IMG/VR virus record: IMGVR_UViG_3300010354_000051
Location: 54,720-118,719 of that record
Length of the DNA stretch: 64,000 nucleotides
Strand: one strand, 5' to 3'
Source of the DNA: a virus
Of the stretch, positions 2,939 through 63,812 are shown piece by piece. A program made the translations under genes and the position numbers. Position 1 is the first letter of the stretch. Every line of letters begins with the position of its first letter. The notes under the pieces were generated by a model. That model had not been told where the DNA came from, did not search any database, and worked only from the letters and a program-made list of their open reading frames with translations.

Positions 2939-2947
2939 GCTTTTAAC
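2939..2947 (-). promoter_or_regulatory. Late-promoter-like motif variant GTTAAAAGC
   Basis: On the minus strand GTTAAAAGC is followed by TATA and TAG, 18 bases before the ATG at 2920. It has one mismatch to the recurring G(G/T)TGAAAGC element. Confidence 0.4.
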
Positions 2948-2954
2948 GCTCTGA

Positions 2955-5900
2955 TTACTGTTCTGTGTAATTCAGTGAGAGGTAGATCTCATTGTCTGAC
3001 CCGGAATGGTTAGTTAAAGATCGAGCTATGAAGAATGTCGCCAGATTGCCCTCGTCATCATTTATGATGCTCTCTGCAGAGATGTTAAAAATATCTTGTA
3101 AGTTGATTTCGGTAGAGGTATTGGCTGAGACGTAGTAGGTGGCTAGAGAGTCTCCTGAATCAGAAGTCAGCCAACGAATCGGGTACTCAGAAGGGGTGAA
3201 TATGCCAGCCGAATTGGCTCCGCCCGAAGTTAAAAAACTTCCACATTTTTTAGGGGAGTTGTGGATAGATTTGCGCGTGTTCAGGCTGTCCTCTTGCGGG
3301 TCTATAGTAGGGGCGGTAGACAGACCGAATTTGTCCTGGGCTGTGTAAGTTCGGATTGCTTTTACCACGCCATCTGTTTCAGGAACAGAGGCCCATTCAC
3401 CGTGAGAATCAACACCGGTATCGGAGATAGACAGCGTGCAGCGGTGGGGGGTAAACGGCTCTACTTTTATCCCTTCTGAGGTCTTTTGACCGATCCAAAC
3501 CCCGCCCAGACTAGCTCCTTGCCTACCCTGCAGAAACACTCGGACAAAGGGCAATGAGCCCGGAGCTATCTTTGATGTAATGATGCTGGTGACATTCAGA
3601 TCTCTATTTATGTGACCTATGTATATTGTTCGGTAAGACACACTGACTAGTGAACTGGTGGTTATGTTTGCCGGTAATGTGGTTCCTATGGGCAGTAAGA
3701 ATTGGGTGACATCTCCCACCACTCTAACAACACCACCAGTAGTTGTGACATTGCGTACAAATGAGCCCTGGGTTATAGTAACCACATAAGTTTGTGACCC
3801 GAGGTTGGGCCAGGGTGTCGCATTATCACTCAGGTAGTAGGTTGTTACAGAGGTGGCCGGATTGACTTCGGAAATAATGCTGATGTTGTCCCTGATTTCC
3901 CTACCTGCTCTGCAATACAATCCTCTGCAAGTACCTCCATCCACACCAGGAACTGATGGATAGGTTCTATCCAGCTCCGTGTCAAAATTATACCCGGAAA
4001 GCTCTCTAGTCTCGAAATTGAAAGTGTTGCGCAGTAGGTATATAGAAGTCTCGTAGTAAATTGAGTTATTGCTGTAGTCGAAGGCGAAGTCATAAGGTAA
4101 GCCCTCGTAGTAAGTTGACTGCTGGTCGTAAGTTGGTGAACTTTCAATTCCCCAGCTATTGGACAGGGTAGTAGCATACAGCGGGCTGGATACGTCTGTA
4201 CTCGGCCAAGCCAAACCAATCCTCAGCGATGAAGAGTGAGCTGGTACGACAGTAGTATCCATGTCACCCCCGGTCCAGAAAATATAAAACTCACTACTAA
4301 CCACATCTATCGTACTGAGCAAGATTTGATCTCGTCTGAAATAGTCAAATTCTATATCGTAACCGTCAGAGTAGTTGTCAACTAAGGGGAAAGTGAACGG
4401 CAGATAGACTCCATCCGGGCTGGGTAGTTGCTTACTGCTGGACAAATTTAATATCCCGCTTTTATCTCTGGTCAGTTTAACAGTTACGTTGTCTTGGCCG
4501 AAATCTTTTTGATTATCAGCACACAAGACAAACATATCTTTGCCCAGCGCTCTGACGGACTGCCCGCCTATACTCGTCCAGTTATTACTATCAAACGGGC
4601 TCCTGAAATTACCAGCGGAAGGACCGTTGTAAGTAGCTATTGCCGTATGAGTTCTGCCGTCATCGGATGCAATACCTAGTTCGGGATAGTCCAAGGTATA
4701 AAACGGAGTGATTGCAAACTTACCCCTCATACGTCTTTCTTCGGGCAAAGCATCCCAAATATACCCTTCCTGGTGAGAGAAAGCCCACTCCGGACAACCT
4801 CTTTGCCGAACGATTTTAATCTCACAGTCCTGTTGGCTCCTGACCATGAGCTTGTCGGGGAAAATCTCCTTCTTATTGAAGAACTGGTTTCCAAACCGGT
4901 TAATAATGTATTGCTTGGGTTTTATACCCAATACGGTAACCCAGTCAATAGCGTTTATGTTGGTTTTTATTTCGCTAAACTCAGGGCTGGGCAAATAACG
5001 AACACGAGACTGAGCATTTAAACTATATAAAGTCCCCTTGTCATAGCCGTCGATGTAGTAAGACGCACCGTACTTAGACAGGTTTTGATTTACCCTGATC
5101 GTGGATGAATCACTTACCTTCAGTCGATATTTGAAGTAGAAGAAGGGGTCGGCTAGACACGGTCTGCCTAATTGGTTCTCTATAACCAAAGTGTGCATAG
5201 TTACCCATCTACAATCTCCGCTTCCAGTGGGCACATACGCATAGAATCTCGCCCCGATAGCACCGTACCAGCCGAATTCAATCTTGTACATGGTAACCGT
5301 ATCCGGGTTCAGGAAATAACCACTTTTCCCCTCTCCACTAAGGGGATCACCGTTCATATACTTTTGCTCGATTACAGTCTCGTACTGAGTCAGACCGTTT
5401 ACCGTCACAGCCTTGGTATTAGCCGCATAGTTTGCATTAGCTAAGAACTCTGTACTTTCCAGGGGCACGGTAGACCGTCTGACGATAGAGAACAGTGAAC
5501 CGTTTGTCAGCCTGAACATGTAAGAATCGGTAAGATTCTCCACACCGAATTCGAGCACAGTTCCTGGCCCAGCCCCTATCTCACTAACCTTTACGCCATA
5601 AGTAAATCCGCTTATGCGCCCTGGCTGGTATCTAAAAGCCCTGATTGATTTTATAGTCACCTCACTGCTTATACCCTCTATCCCGCCTATTTTGTTGTTG
5701 TTAGTAGGCAGGTTGATTTGCTGACCGAAGGCTTGAGAAGGCCAGAAGTTGGTGAATGTGTTGTTGATTTTGTCCGGGACTAGGGGGGTGTCCAGAACAA
5801 AATACGGTAGTTTCAGGTCTTTCTCTACCTGGGTTATGGTAGACTCGTTGGCATGGACGGTAAATTCCCAATCCTTTAGATCAGATCTAATTTGAGACCA

Positions 5901-6983: not shown

Positions 6984-6986
6984 GGA

Positions 6987-13058: not shown

Positions 13059-13067
13059 GCTTTCAAC
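13059..13067 (-). promoter_or_regulatory. Late-promoter-like motif GTTGAAAGC (leftward)
   Basis: On the minus strand GTTGAAAGC is followed by TTTT and TAGAG, ending 21 bases before the start at 13037. With the plus-strand copy at 13092 it forms a 9-base inverted pair (CTTTCAACG / CGTTGAAAG) serving divergent genes. Confidence 0.5.
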
Positions 13068-13091: not shown

Positions 13092-13100
13092 GTTGAAAGT
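13092..13100 (+). promoter_or_regulatory. Late-promoter-like motif GTTGAAAGT (rightward)
   Basis: Plus-strand GTTGAAAG lies 17 bases before the ATG at 13118, with AAGGAG in between as ribosome binding site. It is the divergent partner of the element at 13059-13067. Confidence 0.45.
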
Positions 13101-14729: not shown

Positions 14730-14738
14730 GCTTTCACC
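14730..14738 (-). promoter_or_regulatory. Late-promoter-like motif GGTGAAAGC (leftward)
   Basis: GGTGAAAGC, then TGAG and TAG on the minus strand, sits 31 bases before the tail-tube-like ATG at 14698, between it and the portal gene. Confidence 0.5.
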
Positions 14739-16676: not shown

Positions 16677-16919
16677 TTAATTCATATCTTCTTCTCTTTT
16701 GCTTTCAACGACATTTTTGCCTTTAAACACGACTTCTAGATCAAGGATCGAGTTGTAAAGATCAGACCGAGAAATCTGACCTTTTTCGTACATGTCAATC
16801 ACTTGTTCTGCCCCTTCTACATAGACTCCGTGCTTGGAGTCTGTGAGGATATTGATTCCTTCCACGCCCTTTGGGCCATTCTCATTCTTGTCTCTATCGA
16901 TTTTAGATTTTTTTGCCAT
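16677..16919 (-). CDS. Small hypothetical protein upstream of portal
   Basis: 80 residues from the ATG at 16919 (MAKKSKIDRDKNENGPK); a TTG at 16964 would add 15. The N-terminus is very basic and charged. The C-terminal half (EQVIDMYEKGQISRSDLYNS) is helical and resembles small helix-turn segments of assembly proteins. It overlaps the preceding gene's end by about 100 bases and carries the portal promoter-like motif within its 3' end. Neither start has a good Shine-Dalgarno, so the start is uncertain. Function unknown. Confidence 0.5.
   Translation of the reverse strand: MAKKSKIDRDKNENGPKGVEGINILTDSKHGVYVEGAEQVIDMYEKGQISRSDLYNSILDLEVVFKGKNVVESKREEDMN
16701..16709 (-). promoter_or_regulatory. 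Late-promoter-like motif GTTGAAAGC (leftward) before portal
   Basis: GTTGAAAGC on the minus strand, 26 bases before the portal GTG at 16674. The following bases (AAAAGAGAAG) fit the TAG box poorly. It lies inside the upstream gene. Confidence 0.4.
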
Positions 16920-18032: not shown

Positions 18033-18052
18033 AGCTATTTTAGTCTATTGTT

Positions 18053-18060
18053 CTTTCACC
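18053..18060 (-). promoter_or_regulatory. Late-promoter-like motif GGTGAAAG (leftward)
   Basis: Minus-strand GGTGAAAG, 20 bases before the ATG at 18032. With the copy at 18069-18077 it forms a perfect 8-base inverted pair separated by 8 bases. Confidence 0.45.
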
Positions 18061-18068: not shown

Positions 18069-18077
18069 GGTGAAAGC
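18069..18077 (+). promoter_or_regulatory. Late-promoter-like motif GGTGAAAGC (rightward)
   Basis: Plus-strand GGTGAAAGC, then TCAG and TAGAG, 21 bases before the GTG start at 18099. Confidence 0.5.
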
Positions 18078-18098: not shown

Positions 18099-21000
18099 GT
18101 GGAAGTTTCTAGCCTTGTCGAAGAAAGGGTTAGCCTTATAGTTACTCGGGCTTTCGACAAGTACAGCAAATTCAATACGGGAGAGGAGTATAAAAATTTG
18201 TACTCGTCCACTGTCAGAATGACTTTGGAAATAAATAGCCGGATTAGAGATAAGAAGATACCGACAATCTTACCCCTTAAGACTGAAATACTTAAAGCGG
18301 CTTATACATTCAATTTTAACATCAGCTCGTTAAGGGAAATTTTTTCTTTGGTGGCTGAGGAGGTTTTTGTAGAGGCTGGAGCAGACTATTCAGCTTTATT
18401 TAAGGCTTATGTAGATAGGGTGATTGAGGGAATTTCAGACCTAGATCAGTTTTCTCGAACAAGCATACTAGAACACTTGCTACAGCTTGAGGCTTATGCT
18501 CCGTCTGACAGTCCGTCTCCCAGGGCAAGAAGTTCCAAGACCAGGCTGAATAAACAAAATAGACAAACCGCCAGTCCGGTTTCTTCTCGCATAGCCAAAA
18601 AATTCAACAGCATCTACTCAGAGAAAGTAGACCTTAAGATAGGGGATATTTCTAACTCGTATAAGGATATTAACTCAATAACCTCTGATTCTGTGGTAAA
18701 AGAGGACGAGATCGAGCAAACTGACATTGACTTGCTCGGCTCTACTTTTGCTGGCGAGGGAAAGTCAATCTACCAAGAATTAATAACTCTTTACAATGCT
18801 GTAGTAGAATTTAGCGGGTTTCAAGGCTCTCTGTCAGATTCGGTCGAGTACTTTTCCACCTTTAGCGAATTCATCTTGGCCATGGCCTACGGTAAAAAGA
18901 TAGAGAGTGGGATATTAGATGACCGGTTTGGTAAGTTTAACCTAATCTACGAGCAGGACGAGCTATCCGGGTTAAGTTTCCTAAACAGCTTGTTCAAAAC
19001 TCAATCAGCTAATCAAGATGGCAATTTGCATGAGAGATTTGCCAAGGGTGTGAAGAATAGATATGTAAGAGCAGATCAGGAAGTTGGCATGGCATGTTTA
19101 GTTCTTGAATCGATATATTCTGAGTGTTTGAAGATCGGGGACAGCATTCAGTCTTTAATAGCTGATCCTTTGCCAGGGATAGGAAATACCACCTATTTGT
19201 TATCAATCCTGTCCGGCATATTCCCTCCGTCTCTAGAGGGTAGAAGTAGAGAGAAAGGGTTTACGGCCGGAGTCTATAAACTTCTGCTTTCATATAGGAA
19301 ACTACTGGGCTTGTATGGGTACGAGCCAAAGCTGCCCGAATTGACGGATAACTTGGTCAAGATTTCCTCTGTACTGTTAGAGTTTTCTAATACGGTCAGA
19401 TCGGCCGGGTTTAGAGAAAGCAATTCTGCCATTGTACCGAATTTAGCGCTAACTTATTACGACCCGTCTAAAATTGGTATTAGACAGAACTTGTTAAGGG
19501 CAGGGTTTACTGAGCCCGAAGTTGAAGAGATACTGTCAGTAAAAACTTTCCCCGAATTGGTAAATAAATTCGCCCCGATTACCGATTCACAAGACGTGAT
19601 CTCTTTCTTCAGAGCTTATGAACTTACCAAACTAATTTATGAATTTGGGGGTCAGGAAGGAGTAGATGCTTATATTTCTTTCTTATACGGTACGGATAAG
19701 TCTGTTATTAGGCTACTTGGTTACTTGACCAAGAACCGGTCTTTAGCTTCTACTGTTATTGCTAGCGACTACCCCAAATTGGTAGGATATTTAATCACTC
19801 TTACTTACGCTGTTAATCCTGCCGAATTAATCAACCTGGAAAAAGTGTTGAGGAATAACAGGCTTAACTTACTAGAGTCTGTGTCTTATCTGTTAAGCAA
19901 AGGTGAAAACTCTGTCCTGAAATCTAAAGAGGATATTGACATGCTGAGCGCTGTTGCTGCTCAGATGGTTACAACGAGCAGCCTAGATTATTCTACTCAT
20001 AAACCAATGTGGAATAGGCTAATTGAGGAGTCGGCAGGCAATGCAAAGAGAGAAGAATTAGAAGGGGTGTATAATAGGTTGAGTGGAATAATTCCAGAAG
20101 AGTTGAACAGTATTCTCCACACTCCATCAGCATTCTCCCCCGTAGGGAAATTAATTGATGGGGTTAGAGGGGGCAATTTTACTTCGCTACTGCGTTACTG
20201 CAATATATTTGGCTTGCTTCATTCCCTGTCCCCATACAGAAATTCAGGGCAGTTGGTAAATAATCATGTTTCTAATTATGGCCGGATGGTTGATTTTCTA
20301 TCCAGCCTGGACAAATTATCTGAGCGTTTGAAGTTAAGCGGTGCCTTGTTGGAGTCTTATATAGATGAGACCCCTGTCACCGATATTGTATTAGTTCAGA
20401 ACAAGAAATTTTCTGCTTTTGTAAAACTAATTGACGGCACTTTAACTTCTGCCGGTAACGAGGCTATTATGCCCTCTCCGGGAATAGGGAACTCCAGAAT
20501 ACCTAATGGGGTCAGAGTTGATAACTCTCTCACCCCAGAAGAAGCCCAGGTAGTTCAGACTAAGGGGGCTGGATTAGGGCTATTCTCTCAATCTAACAGA
20601 AACTCCGAATTTAGTTCGTTTATTCGTTTCGCCCAATCAAATATACTTAGCATGGCTAATTTGTCCCAGTCCGAATTGACCGCTTTGCAAAGCACTTCGC
20701 CACAACCTGCGGGCAGTTCTGCCTCTACAGAAATCTACCCGAAAAGTGTGGACTATTCCGACACTTACAGTCCGTCTACTACCTCAGCAGTCTCTTTGCT
20801 AAACCCGCCCCGGTTTAACTCAGCAACTTCTTGCAAAAGATTTGGTGGCAGTTCATGCCCGAACGAGTCCGCATCAATATGTCGAACAGGGTATAATAAA
20901 GCTCTTGAGCCTGAGGAGGGGTATGGCAGCACTCCCGGACTAGGTTTGTCCGGTGTACCTATTGATCGACCACTAGGGGCAAAAATATCATCGGCCAGGT

Positions 21001-21233
21001 CGTATCCCGCAATTAGCCCGGACCATCCTCAAGCCTCATTTAGCAAAACCGGTCTGGTTAGTAGGATGACATCTCGATCCGTATTCAAAAACTCCGAAAT
21101 ACTTTGTGCGTCATTAGAAGACCCGTTTGATTACAGCGCTTGTATGTCACTTCTAAAGTGCAAGAGGTATGGTAAACTGTCCGGTTCGCTGAGTTTTTGT
21201 CCCGAGACTTTGATAGGAGGCAGGCTAGAATGA
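18099..21233 (+). CDS. Very large hypothetical protein (1044 residues)
   Basis: A mainly helical protein with no family I recognise. The first ~800 residues are alpha-rich with regular Leu/Ile heptad-like stretches (YSECLKIGDSIQSLI, AAQMVTTSSLDY). The last ~200 are Ser/Pro/Asn-rich, low in structure and contain several Cys. It has no membrane segment. The start is GTG at 18099; no ATG with a better site precedes the first conserved helix. It heads a three-gene rightward unit with an LRR protein and a coiled-coil fibre-like protein. A long helical protein in a tail cluster could be a tape-measure, but it lacks the usual transmembrane segments, so this stays a weak suggestion. Confidence 0.6.
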   Translation: MEVSSLVEERVSLIVTRAFDKYSKFNTGEEYKNLYSSTVRMTLEINSRIRDKKIPTILPLKTEILKAAYTFNFNISSLREIFSLVAEEVFVEAGADYSALFKAYVDRVIEGISDLDQFSRTSILEHLLQLEAYAPSDSPSPRARSSKTRLNKQNRQTASPVSSRIAKKFNSIYSEKVDLKIGDISNSYKDINSITSDSVVKEDEIEQTDIDLLGSTFAGEGKSIYQELITLYNAVVEFSGFQGSLSDSVEYFSTFSEFILAMAYGKKIESGILDDRFGKFNLIYEQDELSGLSFLNSLFKTQSANQDGNLHERFAKGVKNRYVRADQEVGMACLVLESIYSECLKIGDSIQSLIADPLPGIGNTTYLLSILSGIFPPSLEGRSREKGFTAGVYKLLLSYRKLLGLYGYEPKLPELTDNLVKISSVLLEFSNTVRSAGFRESNSAIVPNLALTYYDPSKIGIRQNLLRAGFTEPEVEEILSVKTFPELVNKFAPITDSQDVISFFRAYELTKLIYEFGGQEGVDAYISFLYGTDKSVIRLLGYLTKNRSLASTVIASDYPKLVGYLITLTYAVNPAELINLEKVLRNNRLNLLESVSYLLSKGENSVLKSKEDIDMLSAVAAQMVTTSSLDYSTHKPMWNRLIEESAGNAKREELEGVYNRLSGIIPEELNSILHTPSAFSPVGKLIDGVRGGNFTSLLRYCNIFGLLHSLSPYRNSGQLVNNHVSNYGRMVDFLSSLDKLSERLKLSGALLESYIDETPVTDIVLVQNKKFSAFVKLIDGTLTSAGNEAIMPSPGIGNSRIPNGVRVDNSLTPEEAQVVQTKGAGLGLFSQSNRNSEFSSFIRFAQSNILSMANLSQSELTALQSTSPQPAGSSASTEIYPKSVDYSDTYSPSTTSAVSLLNPPRFNSATSCKRFGGSSCPNESASICRTGYNKALEPEEGYGSTPGLGLSGVPIDRPLGAKISSARSYPAISPDHPQASFSKTGLVSRMTSRSVFKNSEILCASLEDPFDYSACMSLLKCKRYGKLSGSLSFCPETLIGGRLE

Positions 21234-22003
21234 AAAATAGATCAATGTGTTCGTTTTTCAAGACGAGCGGAAATGTAAACCTTTTGTCGTTTGGCACGTA
21301 TGGGGATTTTAACGGGGCGTTTGGGGAATCGGTCCGCAGATGTCATATTGACAAAGATTTTAACGACTCTTGCAAGGTTCATATTGAACTGGAGAATAGT
21401 GAGCCGATCGACCAGTTCAAACTAACCAATCAGAACTTGCTGACTTGGGATGACTATTGGATCGATTCAGATAGTGGGAAAATAATCGACCCGATGATGA
21501 AGTCGGTTAATTTACAAAGGAACGATTTAGTTTATGTAAATATGAGCTTGCACAGAGACAGCCTTGAGTCACTGAATCTGGAGGGGAATAACTCCCTACA
21601 GCATTTATACATTCACTCCGCTCCCAAGCTCTCCAGCCTTATTATTGACAACTGCACGTCACTCAGGTATATTTGTCTAGGGGAGAACAGATCTTTAACC
21701 CACATCAGTGCTAAGAATTGCGGATTGAGTTCGGATGCGTTAGAGCAGCTATTAAGGGATTTCCGCCCTACTATAGCTTATACCAGGCCGATAACAGGAG
21801 CAGGCCTATTTCGAAAGGCTCCGTCGACTCTTCTAGACCTGAGGGGGAATGTAATAGACTGGTCTAATCGTAAAATCTCCAGCAAAATCAGGCTACTCTT
21901 GACCAATCATTGGGAGGTCAGATGGGATAATCCACCCCCGACAGACATAATTCCGCTCCGCATGTATTCTTTTCCAGTTGAAAGCAGAATAGCATTAAAC
22001 TAA
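21230..22003 (+). CDS. Leucine-rich-repeat protein
   Basis: 257 residues from ATG 21230, which overlaps the stop of the 1044-residue gene as ATGA (coupled translation). Residues ~100-180 carry irregular LRR units: DSLESLNLEGNNSLQHLYIH, APKLSSLIIDNCTSLRYICL and NRSLTHISAKNCGLS, then LLDLRGN. LRRs form curved protein-binding surfaces; in tailed phages they are usually found in host-recognition proteins. It may share ancestry with the LRR-like C-terminal half of the gene at 1-2920, which has AENCRLSG. No signal peptide. Confidence 0.65.
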   Translation: MKNRSMCSFFKTSGNVNLLSFGTYGDFNGAFGESVRRCHIDKDFNDSCKVHIELENSEPIDQFKLTNQNLLTWDDYWIDSDSGKIIDPMMKSVNLQRNDLVYVNMSLHRDSLESLNLEGNNSLQHLYIHSAPKLSSLIIDNCTSLRYICLGENRSLTHISAKNCGLSSDALEQLLRDFRPTIAYTRPITGAGLFRKAPSTLLDLRGNVIDWSNRKISSKIRLLLTNHWEVRWDNPPPTDIIPLRMYSFPVESRIALN

Positions 22004-23587: not shown

Positions 23588-23596
23588 GCTTTCAAC
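23588..23596 (-). promoter_or_regulatory. Late-promoter-like motif GTTGAAAGC (leftward)
   Basis: GTTGAAAGC, then TAGG and TAAG, 25 bases before the ATG at 23562. It overlaps the 3' end of the glycosyltransferase gene. Confidence 0.45.
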
Positions 23597-28306: not shown

Positions 28307-28315
28307 GCTTTCAAC
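28307..28315 (-). promoter_or_regulatory. Late-promoter-like motif GTTGAAAGC (leftward)
   Basis: GTTGAAAGC, then CTC and TAGAG, 21 bases before the collagen-like gene's ATG at 28285. The AAGCCTCTAGAGGCTT palindrome directly follows. Confidence 0.5.
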
Positions 28316-33403: not shown

Positions 33404-33412
33404 GCTTTCAAC
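33404..33412 (-). promoter_or_regulatory. Late-promoter-like motif GTTGAAAGC (leftward)
   Basis: GTTGAAAGC, then TGGT and TAGGAG, 18 bases before the ATG at 33385. Confidence 0.5.
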
Positions 33413-34566: not shown

Positions 34567-34575
34567 GGTGAAAGC
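34567..34575 (+). promoter_or_regulatory. Late-promoter-like motif GGTGAAAGC before the sheath
   Basis: Plus-strand GGTGAAAGC, then TAA and TAGAG, 35 bases before the TTG start at 34611. Confidence 0.5.
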
Positions 34576-34610
34576 TAATAGAGAGGTCTGTACACTAATG
34601 GAGATCAACC

Positions 34611-39006: not shown

Positions 39007-39015
39007 GTTGAAGGC
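39007..39015 (+). promoter_or_regulatory. Variant motif GTTGAAGGC before the capsid genes
   Basis: Plus-strand GTTGAAGGC, then TTAT and TAG, directly after the protease stop and 151 bases before the decoration-protein ATG. One mismatch to consensus. Confidence 0.4.
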
Positions 39016-41813: not shown

Positions 41814-41840
41814 GCCTAGCCCCTAACAAGAGCTAATTAC

Positions 41841-41866
41841 GCCCGCCCTAATAGGCGGGCTTTTTT
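41841..41866 (+). terminator. Intrinsic terminator after major capsid gene
   Basis: GCCCGCC-CTAATA-GGCGGGC followed by six T: a perfect 7-base GC stem, 6-base loop and T-run. It ends the capsid unit and abuts the promoter-like element at 41867. Confidence 0.9.
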
Positions 41867-41875
41867 GTTGAAAGC
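41867..41875 (+). promoter_or_regulatory. Late-promoter-like motif GTTGAAAGC (rightward)
   Basis: GTTGAAAGC, then AGCT and TAGAG, 24 bases before the ATG at 41900 and immediately after the terminator's T-run. Confidence 0.55.
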
Positions 41876-41899
41876 AGCTTAGAGATCTATTTAATAGAT

Positions 41900-42691
41900 A
41901 TGCCACTTTACACTCCACCTCCAGACTCTTTCGGAGTAGCTAACAACTGTACCCCGGCTACAGTTGACTACTTTATAGAGGTGTTCGGGTTTAATGAGGC
42001 TCTTGAGCTATCCAGATTAGAAGACCCGACTGCAAACACAATAAACTATAACAGAATTCAAACAGCGTTAAATGATTCTGCCGTACTGATTAATAACTAT
42101 ATCGAAACTGCTCCGCCCCAGGGGAAACTGCTAATCGCAGGGTCTTACAGAAGGACTCAGGCAACTATTGCCAGATGGTATCTAGACACACTGCGGCCTA
42201 GAGAACAAGTCATATACGCTTACGAAACCGCCCTAAAACAGCTCGAATTATGGTCTAGTAAAGCGTCTCCTTCAGCCGGATTGAAATGGCAAGAGGCTTA
42301 TCGGTACTGGACTGGTGGTTGCTCTATGGTAATGACCAATACCCAGAGAGACCGATCATTCACTGATACATCACTAGCGAGGTGGGAGATGAGATGGGGT
42401 ACTAACAACAGATGGAACCCGTACAAGAGAAAAGACGCTGTGGTTATTGATAATGTAGCTAGTAGACAACCTAGCGGATCTATTGACAGAAAAAATGTCA
42501 CGCTGATTGGTGATTCGACCCTGGCTGTAAACAGACTATTTGACGAATTGGAGACAACCAGGGACCTGGCCTCGTTCTCCGATACTCAAGACGCTGCTAC
42601 ACCGGTCGAAGGAGATGTCCTGATTGTTAAGGACACAGATGGCAACATAACCACTTATGACGGTGGTCTACAAGAATCGGACACTTTCTAA
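41900..42691 (+). CDS. Head-tail connector, DUF1320 / Mu gp36-like
   Basis: 263 residues; the first ~150 match the DUF1320 pattern. It opens with ATVDYFIEVFGFNEALELSR, then INYNRIQTALNDSAVLINNY, then LLIAGSYRRTQATIARWYL and an AYETALKQLELW helix. Mu gp36 family proteins act at the head completion or neck. The C-terminal ~100 residues are an extension with SFTDTSLARWEMRWGTNNRW and an acidic tail. It follows the capsid gene, as in Mu-like order. Confidence 0.7.
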   Translation: MPLYTPPPDSFGVANNCTPATVDYFIEVFGFNEALELSRLEDPTANTINYNRIQTALNDSAVLINNYIETAPPQGKLLIAGSYRRTQATIARWYLDTLRPREQVIYAYETALKQLELWSSKASPSAGLKWQEAYRYWTGGCSMVMTNTQRDRSFTDTSLARWEMRWGTNNRWNPYKRKDAVVIDNVASRQPSGSIDRKNVTLIGDSTLAVNRLFDELETTRDLASFSDTQDAATPVEGDVLIVKDTDGNITTYDGGLQESDTF

Positions 42692-42692
42692 C

Positions 42693-43043
42693 ATGTCACT
42701 TAACCAGCCCTACGGTTACGACCCGTTCAACCCAGCCCAGCCTGGCGGTGCCGGACTGCTAACCATACTACCAAACTCCTCCGGAAGCGCTTGCAGTTAC
42801 AACTCTTCCGGACTGCAAGGACTTAACCATTCCTCATTCGGGGTGTTTCCCGACTCGACTCCTTACAAGCAGTCGGCTAGCGAGCTGCGTCAGTATATTA
42901 TCGCACTGGAAGGGACTAGAAAGCTTAGGGATCTGTCCGATGTAAACTTTACCCGGTCTCCACAACCTGACGACCTGCTAGCGTATAACTACACCACAGG
43001 GTATTGGGAACTGGTAGATTTTATTTCAGGGGGAGAGTTTTAA
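42693..43043 (+). CDS. Small virion protein
   Basis: 116 residues from ATG 42693, one base after the connector gene ends. Pro/Gly/Ser-rich N-terminus (MSLNQPYGYDPFNPAQPGGA). The C-terminus (LRDLSDVNFTRSPQPDDLLA, then YNYTTGYWELVDF) resembles a beta module common in phage structural proteins ('L.DLsDV....p.dgd.L.yn...g.W'). Function in neck or fibre attachment is uncertain. Its end overlaps the convergent deaminase gene by 18 bases. Confidence 0.65.
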   Translation: MSLNQPYGYDPFNPAQPGGAGLLTILPNSSGSACSYNSSGLQGLNHSSFGVFPDSTPYKQSASELRQYIIALEGTRKLRDLSDVNFTRSPQPDDLLAYNYTTGYWELVDFISGGEF

Positions 43044-43653: not shown

Positions 43654-43662
43654 GTTGAAAGC
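43654..43662 (+). promoter_or_regulatory. Late-promoter-like motif GTTGAAAGC (rightward)
   Basis: GTTGAAAGC, then TCGA and AAGAG, 20 bases before the ATG at 43683. Confidence 0.5.
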
Positions 43663-45647: not shown

Positions 45648-45908
45648 TTAGGGGAACATTTCATTGAAAAAAGTTTCGGACATCCTGCACAGCAGCAAAA
45701 CAATCTCTTCTTGAGACAATTCGCCCCTCTCAGTAAGGATCTCTTTGGCTAAGAGAAAAGGAGAAGCTGACTCTGAGTCGGGATCGAAGTCGTGATAGGA
45801 CAAAAAGGCAGAAAAGAGGTCAGTCTCCCCTTTCTCTTCCGCCCAGGCAAGAACTTCCCGGTACTCCTCCCCTTCACGTAGGGCTTCCGTGATTCTGGAT
45901 AGTTCCAT
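45648..45908 (-). CDS. Small hypothetical acidic protein
   Basis: 86 residues, helical and strongly acidic (MELSRITEALREGEEYREVL; ILTERGELSQEEIVLLLCRM). Its ATG lies 35 bases inside the end of the polymerase gene, so it is likely translated from the same message. No recognised family. Possibly a polymerase accessory or an inhibitor of a host protein, but nothing shows this. Confidence 0.55.
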   Translation of the reverse strand: MELSRITEALREGEEYREVLAWAEEKGETDLFSAFLSYHDFDPDSESASPFLLAKEILTERGELSQEEIVLLLCRMSETFFNEMFP

Positions 45909-48621
45909 TCCTGGTCTGGAGTCTCTTACCCAAACATTCTAGCACGGGAACAAGGGAGACGATGGTGTGCGCTCTGCCATCCGGCTCGGGATTAGGCTGA
46001 GACACGGTCACAGTGCTGGCAGTAGCCGATTTGCGAAAGATCTTATCGACCTCGATACTGCTGAACCAGGCGTTGGCGTGGGGCATTTCACAAATCCCAT
46101 ATCGGTATCTTAGCCAAGCCCAGCTCCACAAATGGGCAATTTGGTACAGGGCGGATACTAAGTCCGCATCTTCCTCTCTGCACATGTACAAAACACTGTC
46201 ATGTACAGACATGCAGAACCGAGCTGATACACTAAATTTTCTCGTCAAGTACTCCATAGAGGTTAGGAATGCGTGAAGCATTGCACTTCCTGTAGATTGA
46301 ATCACCCAGTTATTTCTCATGGTAAAGAAGTCTTTACCGACTGAGGATGGTCGGAAAGCAGTGGACATTCTCGTACCACTTAAGGGGTTGCAAGGCGTAG
46401 TCATATTGGCTATACGGGCCATTTCGTTGTAGGCATAAGAATCACTACCGCCTATCAGGAAAGTGGAGGTTTTGCTTGCTTTCTTTCCTTTCTTTCTTTC
46501 TATAAGCCTTTTGGCTAGTTTTTCAGCTTCAGCCACCGGTATGGATTTATTACCCTTGCGTATAGTCGATGCGAGAGTTCTTACACCAGCTCCGTACATC
46601 ATGCCATAGTTACAACCCTTTGCTATCGATCTGCTTATACCAATAGTATTAGCGGTGACACTGTGCATGTCACTGCCATCGTCTTTTGATCCGGCCAAAA
46701 TACTATGGCCGAATTGTGTGCTGCCGGAGATCCGGTGGTAAGAGTCGGCAAAGATACTAGCAACTACAGCTTCTTGTCCATCATAGTCCGACGAAATAAA
46801 CGTATACGGGCTGCTAACCTGGACTCGAGTTTTAACCTCTGTCCCTATCTTTTCAGGCTTGGGGTCAGGAACAGTCAGCCAAAGACTTTCCCCTGCCCGA
46901 TTAGTAGCAGTGTTATGGGGTACGGTTTGAGGGACGATAACCGTCAGATCGGAGTCATTAGCCTTCATGGGGAGCTGAGCCAAAACCCTGCTTCTAACCG
47001 AAGTCCAGTAGGAGACTTTAATGGCCAGTTTAATAAGCTCTTTGGCCTGTGGGAGTTCGCTAGACAAAGTACCTGACTCGAAATCGGACAGGAAGTCTTT
47101 ACTCAGTACCCCTCCGACATTGACCCCTTCTCCGTTCACATGTGGAATACGCTCATAAAGGCCCTTCTCTTTGTTGAAGAAAGTCCAGCCCTGATCTGAA
47201 GTATGGACAATAGGTTGTCCTAGCCAAGTCAGCCTTAAGAGCAAGTGGCTCAATATAGTCTTAGTCGTTATAGCCTTTAGTTTAATTTCTCCCGTCTCTT
47301 TATTAATCTCACAGTTTTTCCTATACCACATAGGTACACCATACCATTTGGATTTGGGCTGACCATTCAACTTCAGCGCATAGTTAGCGGTCCAGTCAAG
47401 TTGGTTAAGCCACGGGTCGTTTTCAATATCGACTTCGTCATTTTTCCAGTCCTGAAGTAGCTGCTGAGCTAGCTCGGTGAGGAGTTGACTCTGCCGATCA
47501 ATAGATTGTCTCCAAACACTCTCGCAGTTATTCACCCAATCATGCCAATCTGGAGTGATGGGCAGAATAGAAGAGGTTTGAGCAAAATGTCCATACAGGG
47601 TGGTTAGGGACGGATTAGATTGGAGATACTTGAGGACTAGTATTGAATACAGATCGAAGGTGAGTTTTGCGTCGTTCAGGGCGTATGCGACAAGCTTATC
47701 TCTATCCGGAAGAAACTCCGACATGCTCGTAGCATCGACAAACAAGTTACGGGTCTTTTTTGTGTCTTTTTCTGCCGGGATGAGGGGCTTACAGTGAAAA
47801 TTATACGCATCGATCAAATTGTTCATCGAGCCTTTATCAGCCCAGGCCGGAAGAACCGAATCGTCCAAATCCTTGCTGACAAACAGAAACCGCTGATCAG
47901 AGGCTAATCCGCTCACATTTATATGCGCGGAGAAAGTATCGAACCACAAGTTGCCTGAGGGGGATGTGGGGTGGTAAGGATCGTGGTGAAGATCGTAGGC
48001 TTCTTGAGTGCGTTGTCGGTCAAACCCGACATTATGGGCGATAAGCAGGCTATTCTTTGTATTTAACGGGACAAGTTTAGGGGTATAGGCTATGCTAGTG
48101 TCTGCAAAAGACTCATGCATCCACAAGTAGTACGAATCGGCGGACACGACACTGGCCAAGATTGGGTGGCCGAATATCGAACCTTGTACGAAAGTCTCGC
48201 AGTCAAAAATAGCAATTGGTACATCTTTTAGACCCTTATCGCCAATCCACTCAACCTCGCCATTAAACCCGTACCGGGTCCAGCCAGCCTTGTATACAAA
48301 ACAGTCTGGTGAAGGGGGTTCGGGGACCTCAGCGCTAGAAAAATTTCTGAGCAGTCTTACCTTATCTTCTAGAATTGTTTTACTGATAGTGGCAAAATGC
48401 TGAGATATGTTTTCGCCCTCGATCTCCGGAATATAAAAATCGGGCAAGTTGGTGAATATGCCAGGGTTTTTTATAGGAAAATTAACCCCGAACTTTTTCA
48501 TTTCGTCAATAATTGAGTTGACGTTGGCACGAGGCTTGTACTCGCTGACCGGAGTCTTACCAAACACTCTCTCCGCCATATTGCTGGGGAGAATAGAGTA
48601 TCCGAGAGGGTTCAGAGTCAT
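45874..48621 (-). CDS. Family A DNA polymerase, mitochondrial polymerase-gamma-like
   Basis: 915 residues with proofreading and polymerase domains. Exonuclease motifs: FDCETF (Asp140/Glu142), AHNVGFD (Asp201), YALNDAKLT (Asp317). Polymerase motifs: A with Asp612 in ISSDYDGQEAVVA; B in SIAKGCNYGMMYG (~664-676); C in RFCMSVHDSVLYMCREED (Asp808). The N-terminus (LNPLGYSILPSNMAERVFG) and the region after motif C parallel human polymerase gamma, not E. coli Pol I. Motif C has Ser809 where the family has Glu (HDE). This is presumably the replicative polymerase. S-TIM5 has such a gene. Confidence 0.9.
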   Translation of the reverse strand: MTLNPLGYSILPSNMAERVFGKTPVSEYKPRANVNSIIDEMKKFGVNFPIKNPGIFTNLPDFYIPEIEGENISQHFATISKTILEDKVRLLRNFSSAEVPEPPSPDCFVYKAGWTRYGFNGEVEWIGDKGLKDVPIAIFDCETFVQGSIFGHPILASVVSADSYYLWMHESFADTSIAYTPKLVPLNTKNSLLIAHNVGFDRQRTQEAYDLHHDPYHPTSPSGNLWFDTFSAHINVSGLASDQRFLFVSKDLDDSVLPAWADKGSMNNLIDAYNFHCKPLIPAEKDTKKTRNLFVDATSMSEFLPDRDKLVAYALNDAKLTFDLYSILVLKYLQSNPSLTTLYGHFAQTSSILPITPDWHDWVNNCESVWRQSIDRQSQLLTELAQQLLQDWKNDEVDIENDPWLNQLDWTANYALKLNGQPKSKWYGVPMWYRKNCEINKETGEIKLKAITTKTILSHLLLRLTWLGQPIVHTSDQGWTFFNKEKGLYERIPHVNGEGVNVGGVLSKDFLSDFESGTLSSELPQAKELIKLAIKVSYWTSVRSRVLAQLPMKANDSDLTVIVPQTVPHNTATNRAGESLWLTVPDPKPEKIGTEVKTRVQVSSPYTFISSDYDGQEAVVASIFADSYHRISGSTQFGHSILAGSKDDGSDMHSVTANTIGISRSIAKGCNYGMMYGAGVRTLASTIRKGNKSIPVAEAEKLAKRLIERKKGKKASKTSTFLIGGSDSYAYNEMARIANMTTPCNPLSGTRMSTAFRPSSVGKDFFTMRNNWVIQSTGSAMLHAFLTSMEYLTRKFSVSARFCMSVHDSVLYMCREEDADLVSALYQIAHLWSWAWLRYRYGICEMPHANAWFSSIEVDKIFRKSATASTVTVSQPNPEPDGRAHTIVSLVPVLECLGKRLQTRNGTIQNHGSPT

Positions 48622-50072: not shown

Positions 50073-50081
50073 GCTTTCAAC
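50073..50081 (-). promoter_or_regulatory. Late-promoter-like motif GTTGAAAGC (leftward)
   Basis: GTTGAAAGC on the minus strand, 30 bases before the ATG at 50042. Downstream bases (AATTTGACTG) lack the TAG box. Confidence 0.4.
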
Positions 50082-50723: not shown

Positions 50724-50724
50724 A

Positions 50725-50798
50725 CGTTCCAGGAGGGACTTGAACCCCCGACCGACCGCTTAGAAGGCGGATGCTCTATCCGGCTGAGCTACTGGAAC
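50725..50798 (-). tRNA. tRNA-Arg (anticodon TCT)
   Basis: Full cloverleaf on the minus strand: acceptor GTTCCAG paired with CTGGAAC, anticodon stem around loop CTTCTAA (anticodon TCT), and T loop TTCAAGT. CCA is not encoded. It would decode AGA, a codon that is frequent in this phage's A-rich genes. Confidence 0.92.
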
Positions 50799-50820
50799 AA
50801 AAGACAGTCGTGACTGTCAG

Positions 50821-50902
50821 TCGGAAAGACGAGACTCGAACTCGTATGCCTTTCGGCGGCGCATTTTGAGTGCGCTGTGTCTACCAATTCCACCACAATC
50901 CG
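50821..50902 (-). tRNA. tRNA-Leu (anticodon CAA), imperfect acceptor stem
   Basis: A class II tRNA with long variable arm. D region TGGTGGAATTGGTAGACAC is typical of Leu; anticodon loop CTCAAAA (CAA) sits on a perfect GCGCA/TGCGC stem; T arm ACGAG-TTCGAGT-CTCGT. The acceptor pairing CGGATTG/CTTTCCG has two T-T mismatches, so it may be decaying or need tolerance for them. Confidence 0.82.
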
Positions 50903-50908
50903 ATTAGG

Positions 50909-50981
50909 TAGGGGTCGCGAGGATCGAACTCGCCTGTGGCGGATTATGAGTCCGCTGCATTCACCAGATTGCTAGACCCCC
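50909..50981 (-). tRNA. tRNA with CAT anticodon (Met or Ile2)
   Basis: Cloverleaf with acceptor GGGGGTC/GACCCCT (one G-T pair), D arm GCA..TGC, anticodon stem GCGGA/TCCGC with loop CTCATAA, and T arm GCGAG-TTCGATC-CTCGC. The CAT anticodon means elongator Met, or Ile reading AUA if lysidine-modified. The initiator features (C-A mismatch at the end, three GC pairs) are absent. Confidence 0.88.
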
Positions 50982-51510: not shown

Positions 51511-52324
51511 AATAAAATACCTCAGAGTTTCGGTTGTTAAGGCCGTATTTACTCGGAGCTTTCAACTCGTAGTAGGTACGGGGAGTGAATAGTCTAGCAG
51601 GTAGCAGGTCCTTAGTGAAGGGGATCTCATGACCCCATTTATGGCCTGCAGTACTGACACAGACTTTATACCCGAGTTCGGCTAGCTCACAAACTTGCTT
51701 TTTTACCAGATCGACTTTACGCTTATTCCAAACACATCCACACCCGTATTGGGCAGGCTGAGCCGGAACGTGCAGATAGATTATTGTGTTATCGTCAACC
51801 AGCGAAATAGGGAAATTTTTGAGGCCGCTGTTGTGATATATTAGGTCTTTTGTTTGAAGGCCGGCTTGCCACTCCCTGATCTGTTCAAAAGGGGGTGGGA
51901 TAGGATTGTTAAATTCCATAACCAGCTTTCTTCTGCGGAAGTGATATGAAAACCCTGACTGGGCAAGCAGACAATAATACCTGGCAACTTCTGTCCAGGA
52001 CTTAAATGCCGTGCTTCTAAGTGCGCTACGGATATTAGTAGTTTGAAGTAATGCTATGGCATAGCGCACGTTTCTACCCTGGTCAAATTCATTAACCCAT
52101 ACATCTTTTAACAAGGATAATGAGGTTGATGTGGACAAGAACTTGTGCAGATCGAGAACAAATCTCTCATCGGAACAGATGATTAGCTTGCTTGATGCTG
52201 AGTAGTATGGCAGATAGGAAGATCCGGACTCTACACACAAGTAGTTATGTGAACGGGCTTGAGTATAATCACCCATGAACTGGTCATGGGTGCGCGTATA
52301 CCTGCCGGGCAGTGGTATAATCAT
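51497..52324 (-). CDS. Degenerate Dam-like (D12-class) DNA adenine methyltransferase relative
   Basis: 275 residues whose order of elements follows D12-class adenine methyltransferases. An AdoMet-site-like SGSSYLPYYSASSKLIICSD (~33-52) is followed by a CFNG/R-like centre in YYCLLAQSGFSYHFRRRKLV. The strand TIIYLHVPAQPAQ stands where catalytic DPPY should be, then LAELGYKVCVSTAG and an end NRNSEVFYCANF like 'EvliTNy'. With HVPA in place of DPPY it is probably not a methyltransferase; it may bind DNA or AdoMet. Its ATG overlaps the upstream stop. Confidence 0.45.
   Translation of the reverse strand: MIIPLPGRYTRTHDQFMGDYTQARSHNYLCVESGSSYLPYYSASSKLIICSDERFVLDLHKFLSTSTSLSLLKDVWVNEFDQGRNVRYAIALLQTTNIRSALRSTAFKSWTEVARYYCLLAQSGFSYHFRRRKLVMEFNNPIPPPFEQIREWQAGLQTKDLIYHNSGLKNFPISLVDDNTIIYLHVPAQPAQYGCGCVWNKRKVDLVKKQVCELAELGYKVCVSTAGHKWGHEIPFTKDLLPARLFTPRTYYELKAPSKYGLNNRNSEVFYCANF
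51558..51566 (-). promoter_or_regulatory. Possible late-promoter-like motif GTTGAAAGC-type (leftward) before speD
   Basis: Minus-strand GTTGAAAGC with CTCC and GAG after it, within the 3' end of the preceding gene and 47 bases before the speD GTG. Lies inside coding DNA, so chance is possible. Confidence 0.3.
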
Positions 52325-53921: not shown

Positions 53922-54440
53922 TCATAGAATTTCTGTCTCCGTTTCCTCAGCTTTCAACTCTAATGTTTCAATCGGTCTTAACACCTTCTTCGGTACGAAA
54001 TAGGCCGGTCGTCCACGGGCCGGATCAGACCAATACTCTTTCTTCATAACCTCTTCGGCTATGCACCAGCCCCAAATAATTATCGTGCCTTTTTCCACCG
54101 TAATCAGAATCATTTTCTTATCCGGCCTTTCATCTTTCTGAACAATAAGGTCGTAAGAGTGCTTACTCCTGGTCTTTACCTCTATGTCCCCAGGCAAATC
54201 AGAACTTCCACGGACGGAAGTTGTTGCTTGAAAAACCTGATCTTGCAAGTTGAGAAATACCGCAGCGGCCATTTCTCCCATTGCCCCTATCCGGTGCATG
54301 TTGAGAGACGACGGGCCGAAAGCCGGAGCGTTGTTACGACCTAGGAGGTTTTTCTGCTCGTTGACAGTCTGCCTCCTATTCGCCTCTTCTAAAGCCTTTT
54401 TCTTCTGGTCGGGGGTGAGGTAGATGATTCGACCTGACAT
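53922..54440 (-). CDS. PD-(D/E)XK nuclease-like protein
   Basis: 172 residues. Residues ~50-90 fit a PD-(D/E)XK fold: an IGAMGEMAAAVFLN helix with the first Glu, then the core SSDLPGDIEVKTRSK (Asp, x, Glu-Val-Lys), then the strand MILITVEKGTIIIWGW. This is typical of small structure-specific or restriction-like nucleases, including phage recombination and Holliday-junction enzymes. The N-terminus is Lys-rich. It overlaps the topoisomerase gene's end by 52 bases, a repair/replication context. Exact substrate unknown. Confidence 0.6.
   Translation of the reverse strand: MSGRIIYLTPDQKKKALEEANRRQTVNEQKNLLGRNNAPAFGPSSLNMHRIGAMGEMAAAVFLNLQDQVFQATTSVRGSSDLPGDIEVKTRSKHSYDLIVQKDERPDKKMILITVEKGTIIIWGWCIAEEVMKKEYWSDPARGRPAYFVPKKVLRPIETLELKAEETETEIL
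53950..53958 (-). promoter_or_regulatory. Possible late-promoter-like motif GTTGAAAGC (leftward)
   Basis: GTTGAAAGC, then TGAGG, within the 3' end of the nuclease-like gene, 62 bases before the TTG at 53887. Inside coding DNA, so weak. Confidence 0.3.
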
Positions 54441-56161: not shown

Positions 56162-56163
56162 TA

Positions 56164-56895: not shown

Positions 56896-56897
56896 CC

Positions 56898-60164: not shown

Positions 60165-60167
60165 TCT

Positions 60168-60622: not shown

Positions 60623-60623
60623 A

Positions 60624-60881: not shown

Positions 60882-60883
60882 GC

Positions 60884-61716: not shown

Positions 61717-61722
61717 GGCTAG

Positions 61723-62220: not shown

Positions 62221-62723
62221 TTCTTTTTCAGAATAAAGCCCGTACAAAATGCTACCGCAAACGCGATTCCCCACCCTATGCAAAGAGATACCAAAGCCCT
62301 GATGAAAGTTTCCCAACCAAAAATAATAAACAAAGCACCCATCAATAATCCAATCCACATTGAATCAAACATTAACGGGTAAGATTGAACAATTTTTATA
62401 TCCGGGCTCACTACCTCATGCTCTTCAAAGACAGCCGGAGAGAACACCAGCAGAGTGTGAACTTCGTTCAGAACAGAATTCAACCCGCGACTTTTTGCAG
62501 CCGCTTTGAGGCCCGCTAATCTAACTGATCTATACCCGATGCAATTTCTAATTCTTTCTCTTATATTCTGTCCTCTCTTCCTCCCTTTGCCATCAATCCA
62601 AAACAGAAGATTCTTCTCCCCATCTACAATTATTTCCCTTACACGAACTTTCTTACCCAGCATAAAGAGAGCGGACCGGATAAAAAGAATTTCCGGCAGT
62701 AGCGGTGAAGAGTTAGTTGACAT
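62217..62723 (-). CDS. Small cluster protein, membrane-anchored
   Basis: 168 residues from ATG 62723. An N-terminal helix precedes KKVRVREIIVDG, LLFWIDGKGRKRGQN, a basic stretch, the motif SRGLNSVLNEVHTLLVFSPA, and two C-terminal membrane helices (MWIGLLMGALFIIFGW; WGIAFAVAFCTGFILKKK). Same order as the neighbours. The stop overlaps the next gene's ATG. Function unknown. Confidence 0.65.
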   Translation of the reverse strand: MSTNSSPLLPEILFIRSALFMLGKKVRVREIIVDGEKNLLFWIDGKGRKRGQNIRERIRNCIGYRSVRLAGLKAAAKSRGLNSVLNEVHTLLVFSPAVFEEHEVVSPDIKIVQSYPLMFDSMWIGLLMGALFIIFGWETFIRALVSLCIGWGIAFAVAFCTGFILKKK

Positions 62724-63015
62724 TTTCAAAAGATAGTCGAAGGATAATGCACTGAAGTAGGTAATCTAACAAAACTTCACGACCTTTTTCGTTTAAAATG
62801 CGGACCAAATCATTATGGTCAAGTTTGTTTAACCATTTGCGTATACCAAACTTCTTCCAGAGGGAATAGTGATCGTATTCATCCAGATCACAAACAGTAC
62901 GATTGATATAAGATATACGACGGTATTCTTCGCAATGTACAAACACTTCAAACGCTGCTATCTCCCCTCTCTCTGTTAAATAATAAGACAAGTTCGTTTC
63001 TTCGTTAATCATCAT
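62713..63015 (-). CDS. Small cluster protein
   Basis: 100 residues from ATG 63015, with CCGGAG as Shine-Dalgarno; an in-frame ATG follows at the next codon. It is acidic and Tyr-rich, with EIAAFEVFVHCEEYRRISYI and DEYDHYSLWKKFGIRKWLNK. The end (EKGREVLLDYLLQCIILRLSFE) carries a version of the cluster motif. No clear membrane helix. Overlaps the next gene by 11 bases. Confidence 0.55.
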   Translation of the reverse strand: MMINEETNLSYYLTERGEIAAFEVFVHCEEYRRISYINRTVCDLDEYDHYSLWKKFGIRKWLNKLDHNDLVRILNEKGREVLLDYLLQCIILRLSFENVN

Positions 63016-63204
63016 TCCCACTCCGGGATAAGAAAAGCAGAGACGGCCTTGCTGCCCATCAGCTCAGTGCCGACTAACAAAGCATGATACGCACTGAACG
63101 CCATCACCTCGATACACTTGAATGATGTACAGACTCGGTAGGGTAGAAGCTCGGCCATCAGAGCTAACCAAGAACAACCCAATCATTCTACCACAATTCG
63201 GACC

Positions 63205-63247
63205 CTGGGGCGGGCGGAGTCCGCCCCAGCCCCTCCCGTTAGGGAGG
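63205..63247 (-). terminator. Paired GC-rich hairpins downstream of the 63253 gene
   Basis: CTGGGGCGG-GCGGAGT-CCGCCCCAG (63205-63229) and CCTCCC-GTTA-GGGAGG (63232-63247) stand just after the leftward gene's stop. There is no T-run, so factor-independent termination is unsure. They may also protect the mRNA end. The rest of 63022-63252 holds no gene I can support. Confidence 0.5.
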
Positions 63248-63252
63248 ACAAG

Positions 63253-63774
63253 TCAAATGTACCAGGGATGCCTAAATCTTAACTGTACTATTATACGAAC
63301 AATCGTTTTCGCCCCGTACACATAGGCTAAGAACCCTAGTGGCAATATAAGACCAGGGACAACATATATTACAGGTATTACTGAGATTACACCTATACAC
63401 CTTAGTAATACCGACCATACCTGGCCAATTTCGTAAAGGTTAATTCTAGCCTTTAAAGTCATAACAGTAGTTTTCCTGTTGACGGAACCAACATCAAGCT
63501 CAAAATGCAAAAGGGTCGTTATTTCACTTGCCACAGCTTTAATCCCCCTTTCTCTTACCTGTTCCCAAAAGCTTATCTCACCAGTAACATAATAAGCGAA
63601 ATCACCTTCTCCCTCAAGGGATCTCTCTGCGCTGATTAGCCTGTTAGGCTCGTACCACATATATAAGACATTAGTATCATACCCTTCCCCTACCATACGG
63701 GCTATCCTAACACCATAAACGAATCTGAAGTAAGCATAGACAACCATCAGTTTAACAAGCTTCATGTCAGCCAA
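63253..63774 (-). CDS. Cluster protein with C-terminal membrane segments
   Basis: About 173 residues from TTG 63774 (170 from ATG 63765); GGAGG lies 3 bases before the TTG and 12 before the ATG, so the start is open. It has VVYAYFRFVYGVRIARM, YMWYEPNRLIS and RERGIKAVASEITTLLHFEL, then two or three membrane helices (IPVIYVVPGLILPLGFLAYV). It is the paralogue of the gene at 61723 and the first of the leftward cluster. A TATAAT box lies at 63876-63881 on the same strand. Confidence 0.65.
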   Translation of the reverse strand: MADMKLVKLMVVYAYFRFVYGVRIARMVGEGYDTNVLYMWYEPNRLISAERSLEGEGDFAYYVTGEISFWEQVRERGIKAVASEITTLLHFELDVGSVNRKTTVMTLKARINLYEIGQVWSVLLRCIGVISVIPVIYVVPGLILPLGFLAYVYGAKTIVRIIVQLRFRHPWYI

Positions 63775-63803
63775 AAGCCTCCAGCTTTATAAAATTAAAA
63801 GAG

Positions 63804-63812
63804 GGTGAAAGC
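63804..63812 (+). promoter_or_regulatory. Late-promoter-like motif GGTGAAAGC (rightward)
   Basis: GGTGAAAGC, then CAGA and TAGG, pointing right. No start codon with a long frame follows within the window; the gene it serves may lie beyond the end, or the site is chance. Confidence 0.35.

What the first reader, a model, noticed from the sequence alone, without database searches (positions are those of the whole stretch)
2939..63812. Strand-oriented motif G(G/T)TGAAAGC-N3/4-TAG at the head of structural transcription units
About 19 sites (listed as features) carry GKTGAAAG(C) or a one- to two-mismatch variant. Most lie 17-35 bases before the first gene of a unit, on the coding strand, and most are followed after 3-4 bases by TAG(A/G). 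They serve portal, tube, sheath, connectors, fibres and adhesins. By eye the polymerase, topoisomerase and 56.6-63.8 kb genes lack them. That distribution fits a phage-specific late promoter with a single core element, comparable in logic to T4 late promoters but different in sequence. I know of no described promoter with this consensus.
Basis: partly seen in the sequence, partly recalled or inferred. Interest (0 to 1): 0.8.

Follow-up and report, generated by a model that had tools for sequence, protein, structure and literature searches.

The report
Phage late promoter with matching sigma factor
This uncultured relative of cyanophage S-TIM5 carries a short DNA signal, GTTGAAAGC, in front of many of its particle-building gene units, very probably the start switch read by the phage's own sigma factor; one letter of the signal differs between two phage lineages together with their sigma factors, so which protein part reads that letter can be tested directly.

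Summary
The motif is real. In the 118.7-kb phage record holding the window, GKTGAAAGC occurs 26 times (2.3 expected) and GKTGAAAGC-N3/4-TAG 13 times (0.08 expected). A matrix trained only on related phages finds 33 strong sites (2.6 expected). In the window, 15 of 19 sites start 26-44 bases before a start codon. The element is GTTGAAAGC-N4-TAGA; nothing is conserved upstream and divergent cores lie as close as 1 bp, so there is no -35 box.

Relatives carry it at the same gene heads. Cyanophage S-TIM5 and its clade use GTTTAAAG, before 18 of 47 structural/packaging genes and 2 of 41 other annotated genes. Each phage tested encodes exactly one sigma-70-type protein, SigF/SigB-like and not related to T4 gp55. 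Across 80 sigma loci one sigma clade goes with GTTG (148 G, 2 T), the other with GTTT (119 T, 6 G): one evolutionary change.

Best reading: single-element late promoters read by host RNA polymerase carrying the phage sigma; they work like T4 late promoters but are not members of that system. Transcript starts, timing and binding are not shown. The S-TIM5 genome paper was not available, so an earlier report of its motif is not excluded.

The parts
2939..2947 (-). motif GTTAAAAGC-TATA-TAGA, 27 before ATG 2920 (1195-aa protein, S-TIM5 gp118-like, annotated virion protein)
13059..13067 (-). motif GTTGAAAGC-TTTT-TAGA, 30 before ATG 13037 (102 aa, S-TIM5 gp008-like virion protein); divergent partner of 13092
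13092..13100 (+). motif variant GTTGAAAGT, 26 before ATG 13118 (48 aa)
14730..14738 (-). motif GGTGAAAGC-TGAG-TAGG, 40 before ATG 14698 (142 aa, tail-tube-like, weak PHROG hit)
16701..16709 (-). motif GTTGAAAGC, 35 before GTG 16674 (portal, phrog_113)
18052..18060 (-). motif variant GGTGAAAGA-ACAA-TAGA, 28 before ATG 18032 (177 aa); 8 bp back-to-back with 18069
18069..18077 (+). motif GGTGAAAGC-TCAG-TAGA, 30 before GTG 18099 (1044 aa, S-TIM5 gp140-like virion protein)
21977..21985 (+). motif GTTGAAAGC-AGAA-TAGC, 33 before ATG 22010 (299 aa, S-TIM5 gp142-like virion protein)
23588..23596 (-). motif GTTGAAAGC-TAGG-TAAG, 34 before ATG 23562 (101 aa)
28307..28315 (-). motif GTTGAAAGC-CTC-TAGA, 30 before ATG 28285 (131 aa)
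33404..33412 (-). motif GTTGAAAGC-TGGT-TAGG, 27 before GTG 33385 (232 aa)
34567..34575 (+). motif GGTGAAAGC-TAA-TAGA, 44 before TTG 34611 (tail sheath); conserved at this place in nearly all sheath relatives of the clade
39007..39015 (+). motif variant GTTGAAGGC-TTAT-TAGC, 160 before ATG 39167 (237 aa); weaker case
41867..41875 (+). motif GTTGAAAGC-AGCT-TAGA directly after a G+C-rich inverted repeat and T-run, 33 before ATG 41900 (head-tail adaptor, phrog_195)
43654..43662 (+). motif GTTGAAAGC, 29 before ATG 43683 (314 aa, S-TIM5 gp156-like)
50073..50081 (-). motif GTTGAAAGC, 39 before ATG 50042 (DUF7201 coiled-coil protein)
51558..51566 (-). motif GTTGAAAGC, nearest candidate starts 54-56 away are TTG/GTG; doubtful
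53950..53958 (-). motif GTTGAAAGC inside a called ORF, no near start; doubtful
63804..63812 (+). motif GGTGAAAGC-CAGA-TAGG 197 bases from the record end; any gene it serves lies beyond

Best explanation
Each site is a promoter with one recognition element. GTTGAAAGC is the -10-type element; TAGA, 4 bases further on, most likely holds the transcription start, giving leaders of about 15-25 bases. Host RNA polymerase is directed there by the phage's own sigma factor (record 41553-42233, + strand, 226 aa, outside the window), a SigF/SigB-like sigma-70 protein with domains 2, 3 and a 4-like C-terminus. Its region 2 reads the element, and no -35 contact is needed. The sites switch on virion genes, so this is presumably late transcription. 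The sigma gene lies near the end of a gene run headed by the motif, which would give positive feedback. Shown: enrichment, position, orientation, conservation at orthologous heads, structural-gene bias in S-TIM5, no upstream information, exactly one sigma per phage, joint change of motif and sigma. Inferred: that this sigma binds these sites, the start point, the timing, use of host core polymerase, and the feedback.
For: Enrichment over shuffles. Profile: nine strong positions, then TAG(A), nothing further upstream; the 40 bases upstream are at null level except position -1. Divergent cores 1-24 bp apart in GTTG phages, 5-20 bp in GTTT phages. Fixed 4-base spacer to TAG. De novo best 8-mer at unit heads: GTTGAAAG in four phages, GTTTAAAG in three. 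Same gene heads carry it: 19 of 21 in G001 and in G002 (P=6e-11 each), 10 of 16 in S-TIM5 with the other motif (P=2e-4). S-TIM5: 18 of 47 structural vs 2 of 41 other annotated genes (P=2e-4). Exactly one Sigma70_r2 protein in each of six phages, recognised by Pfam, PHROGs and NCBIfam. Sigma clade A loci: 148 GTTG, 2 GTTT; sigma clade T loci: 119 GTTT, 6 GTTG; all 55 loci with >=2 sites agree. No phage RNA polymerase of single-subunit or beta-prime type found.
Against: Motif and sigma change together on only one branch, so shared descent alone would give the same pattern. No transcript, binding or timing data. The sigma model has a sigma-4-like C-terminus (pTM 0.39) that could contact a -35 box, yet none is seen. 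A few sites have no evident gene, and some served genes are not known virion genes (in S-TIM5 one alpha-glucosyltransferase). With one mismatch allowed, 5 of 16 S-TIM5 replication/metabolism genes also match.
Confidence: 0.8

Rival explanations
1. A promoter, but read by another factor (a host alternative sigma, or a phage activator working with host sigma-70); the phage sigma serves other genes.
For: The match of motif and sigma rests on one branch; the sigma's targets are not shown; the host of the GTTG clade is unknown.
Against: It is the only phage sigma in each of six phages. Sigma-70-like boxes are not enriched at motif heads over other genes. The motif letter splits exactly as the sigma tree does, 55 of 55 scorable loci.
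Confidence: 0.11
2. An RNA-level signal in the 5' leader (ribosome binding, processing or stability) rather than a promoter.
For: It lies 26-44 bases before start codons and contains GAAAG, slightly Shine-Dalgarno-like.
Against: Too far from the start codon for a ribosome-binding site and at variable distance. Found at unit heads, not before internal genes. Shine-Dalgarno-like stretches near the start are no rarer overall in motif genes. Back-to-back divergent pairs 1-24 bp apart are hard to explain for an RNA signal. The sigma clade match would be unexplained.
Confidence: 0.04
3. An operator for a DNA-binding regulator of virion genes, next to ordinary promoters.
For: Some divergent pairs form near-palindromes, e.g. 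CTTTCAACGGTTGAAAG.
Against: Most sites are single and strand-oriented; a fixed downstream TAG element and no -35/-10 boxes near by fit a promoter better.
Confidence: 0.03
4. A promoter of a phage-encoded RNA polymerase (T7/SP6-like; the SP6 promoter also has GGTGA and TATAG, own knowledge).
For: Single element and fixed spacing to a start-like TAG.
Against: No PF00940 match in this phage, G001, G002 or S-TIM5 while T7 rings at 1e-109; no beta-prime domain PF00623, which rings in all 14 controls.
Confidence: 0.02

Closest known systems
T4 late promoters (8-bp TATA box) read by gp55
   Same: One element of 8-9 bp about a helical turn before the start, no -35 conservation, both strands, virion genes, phage-encoded sigma-70-family protein (PMC2988020).
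   Different: Other sequence (GTTGAAAGC). The sigma is not of the gp55 family: phrog_234 finds gp55 in T4 (2.5e-70) and nothing in this phage or S-TIM5; profile comparison fails. It has sigma-3 and sigma-4-like parts that gp55 lacks. Roles of gp33 and the sliding clamp not tested.
Bacterial SigF/SigB/SigG and FliA (sigma-28) group
   Same: The phage sigma's best NCBIfam matches are the SigB/SigF/SigG and SigF models. Sigma-28's -10 element GCCGATAA (PMC2859248) shares G1, G4, A5 and A7 with GTTGAAAG by eye.
   Different: Scores are far below the curated cut-offs. Sigma-28 promoters need a -35 box (TAAAGTTT); none is seen here.
Cyanophage S-TIM5 (Aurunvirus) and relatives
   Same: Same genome plan, orthologous sigma (gp108, annotated SigF in JQ245707; 41% identity) and motif at orthologous heads.
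   Different: GTTTAAAG instead of GTTGAAAGC; no clear fixed TAG downstream.
Ma-LMM01 (Microcystis T4-like phage)
   Same: Another cyanophage with virion genes expressed late.
   Different: Lacks gp55 and uses sigma-70-like promoters throughout; no phage-specific motif was found (PMC5780444).

Membership tests
T4 late transcription system (gp55/gp33/gp45) | gp55-family sigma factor | tested here: not met
   phrog_234 rings in T4 at 2.5e-70, not in G000 or S-TIM5; hhalign probability 0.6
T4 late transcription system (gp55/gp33/gp45) | TATA-box consensus (TATAAATA, own knowledge) | tested here: not met
   consensus found is GTTGAAAGC, or GTTTAAAG in the sister clade
T4 late transcription system (gp55/gp33/gp45) | single element, no -35 conservation | tested here: met
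T4 late transcription system (gp55/gp33/gp45) | sliding-clamp and gp33 activation | not tested
   no search for gp33 or clamp homologues was made
sigma-70-family sigma factor (for the phage protein) | sigma-70 region 2 | tested here: met
   PF04542 above its cut-off (31.1 vs 24 bits); in six of six phages
SigB/SigF/SigG subfamily | score above the subfamily cut-off | tested here: not met
   TIGR02980 33.6 bits vs cut-off 234: related, not a member
phage single-subunit RNA polymerase promoter | T7-type RNA polymerase encoded | tested here: not met
   PF00940 absent, with T7 as positive control; records may be incomplete
bacterial sigma-70 promoter | -35 and -10 boxes at 16-18 bp | tested here: not met
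   no upstream information; no enrichment at motif heads
promoter of any kind | transcript start at a fixed distance | not testable with these tools
   no transcriptome held

The most novel reading that the evidence does not exclude
A lineage-wide late-transcription system that arose separately from T4's: a captured SigF-like sigma reads a one-element promoter without a -35 box, and the two sister clades hold cognate pairs (sigma with S74, T76, Q78 and GTTG; sigma with C/N74, Q76, H78 and GTTT), so a few residues of the recognition helix set one base of specificity.
Probability: 0.55. Interest if true: 0.72.

Novelty: new variant of a known kind. Interest (0 to 1): 0.6.

Why it matters
It gives a widespread, mostly uncultured phage lineage (71 sheath loci and 80 sigma loci found here) a predicted promoter map and a named reader. 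It suggests that T4-like late-transcription logic arose again from another sigma family. The two matched sigma-promoter pairs differ by one core base and few recognition-helix residues: a natural test of how sigma region 2.4 reads the -10 element, and possible orthogonal expression parts for the laboratory.

Tried and rejected
One-mismatch scan of the window alone: not significant. Near-identity search of the phage collection: no match. Sigma-70-like promoters or other motifs at heads without the motif: no clear signal, so what drives early and replication genes stays open. Terminators upstream of motifs: only a few found, no firm association. Weak upstream T/A signal in the GTTT clade: below the null's 95% level once divergent partners are removed. 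Cylindrospermopsis phage Cr-LKS4, the next sigma outgroup (30% identity): no related motif. Bacterial genomes: one weak sigma match only. PDB fold search gives sigma factors but poor global superposition, since domain orientation is not predicted. RNA-signal, operator and phage-polymerase readings: see rivals.

Full report
WHAT WAS CHECKED. The window is bases 54720-118719 of a 118,719-base IMG/VR virus record. I took the rest of the record, called genes with a simple codon-usage caller and listed every GKTGAAAG site with its context. Against dinucleotide shuffles GKTGAAAGC is 26 vs 2.3, and with N3/4-TAG 13 vs 0.08. To avoid circularity I trained a matrix on three related phages only and scanned this one: 33 sites at >=13 bits against 2.6 in shuffles, 22 of them within 85 bases upstream of a same-strand called start, a zone of 3% of positions. 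In the window 15 of 19 sites begin 26-44 bases before a start codon. Two (51566, 53958) are doubtful, one (39007) has a long leader, one (63804) is at the record end.

ANATOMY. Pooled over four phages of the clade (86 sites) the element is GTTGAAAGC, then 4 bases, then TAG(A). TAG stands at offset 4 in 32 of 79 sites and in 1-5 sites at every other offset. No upstream position carries information except the one touching the core. Motif start to start codon has median 33. Divergent units have back-to-back cores separated by 1-24 bp in this clade (8 bp in the window at 18052/18069) and 5-20 bp in the S-TIM5 clade, which leaves no room for separate -35 boxes. T4's 8-bp late TATA box sits about one helical turn upstream of the start (PMC2988020); if this core sits likewise, the start falls in TAG(A). 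That step is inference.

RELATIVES. The tail sheath is 54% identical to that of cyanophage S-TIM5, and most genes have S-TIM5 counterparts in largely the same order. Seventy-one IMG/VR sheath loci were fetched. In the clade of this phage nearly all carry G(T/G)TGAAAGC 38-48 bases before the sheath start, amid otherwise poorly conserved upstream sequence; two have GTTGAAGGC. De novo 8-mer enrichment at unit heads gives GTTGAAAG in this phage and three others and GTTTAAAG in S-TIM5 and two others (sites). In S-TIM5 it lies within 100 bases upstream of 18 of 47 genes annotated structural or packaging and of 2 of 41 annotated as bacterial-like or replication/metabolism (P=2e-4; gene lists entered by hand). 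The same gene heads carry the motif across phages: P=6e-11 within the clade, 2e-4 against S-TIM5.

Each of six phages has exactly one sigma-70 region-2 protein. Here it is record 41553-42233 (+), outside the window, two genes after the large terminase. It matches phrog_351 and, weakly, SigF/SigB-type models, not T4 gp55. The AlphaFold model shows sigma-2, sigma-3 and a sigma-4-like C-terminus with confident helices but unknown domain arrangement. PDB matches are sigma factors. The ungapped profile alignment to a cyanobacterial SigA places residues 73-80 over its W-W-I-R-Q-A-I-T stretch, which holds -10 readers of sigma-70 (own knowledge). In that helix the two clades never share a residue at positions 71, 74, 76, 78 and 79.

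JOINT CHANGE. Across 80 sigma loci, upstream or intergenic GTTNAAAG sites split 148 G: 2 T with one sigma clade and 119 T: 6 G with the other, and 55 of 55 scorable loci agree; the tree needs one change. Two deeper loci with N74 still use T (L150, L193) and one with N76 still uses G (L141), so residue 78 or a combination is favoured. One change cannot prove contact.

ALTERNATIVES. No single-subunit polymerase (T7 as positive control) and no beta-prime domain were found. Distance, restriction to unit heads and near-abutting divergent pairs argue against a translation signal. Sigma-70 boxes are not enriched.

FEEDBACK. The sigma gene lies near the end of the gene run that starts with gene 26 here and with gp100 in S-TIM5, both headed by the motif. 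Positive feedback is plausible, not shown.

NOVELTY. The logic is known (T4 late); the parts are different. No held paper gives either motif as a phage promoter, but the S-TIM5 genome paper is not held, so prior description of GTTTAAAG cannot be excluded.

Noticed in passing
record 18456-21428 (-), outside the window (L009/L010): Ribonucleotide reductase large subunit of 990 aa with an intein C-terminal splicing hit above cut-off and a glutaredoxin domain; the S-TIM5 protein is 636 aa and aligns best to residues 605-990.
   Followed up: partly
45874-48621 (-): Family A DNA polymerase with a mitochondrial-polymerase-type exonuclease domain (PF18136).
   Followed up: no
record 42226-42912 (+) and the gene after sigma in relatives: A conserved gene of about 230 aa with an HxDHxYPF-like motif follows the sigma gene in every phage inspected; no confident Pfam hit.
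   Followed up: partly
34577-34610 and sheath loci L014-L072: The tail sheath leader has further conserved sequence after the motif (about GATAGG-CTGTC and GGAGA) and mostly a TTG start.
   Followed up: no
whole record: 8-mers containing ATCCGG/CCGGAT are strongly over-represented, e.g. CCGGATCG 17 vs 2.1 expected.
   Followed up: no
50724-50981 (-): Three tRNA genes: Arg(tct), Leu(caa), Met(cat).
   Followed up: no
record 1672-2967 (-), outside the window: Phage lysozyme domain joined to a C39/C70-like cysteine peptidase domain.
   Followed up: no
G004:C1:1-480: A relative in the S-TIM5 clade carries psbA, pointing to a cyanobacterial host; no psbA in the GTTG-clade records searched, whose host stays unknown.
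   Followed up: partly
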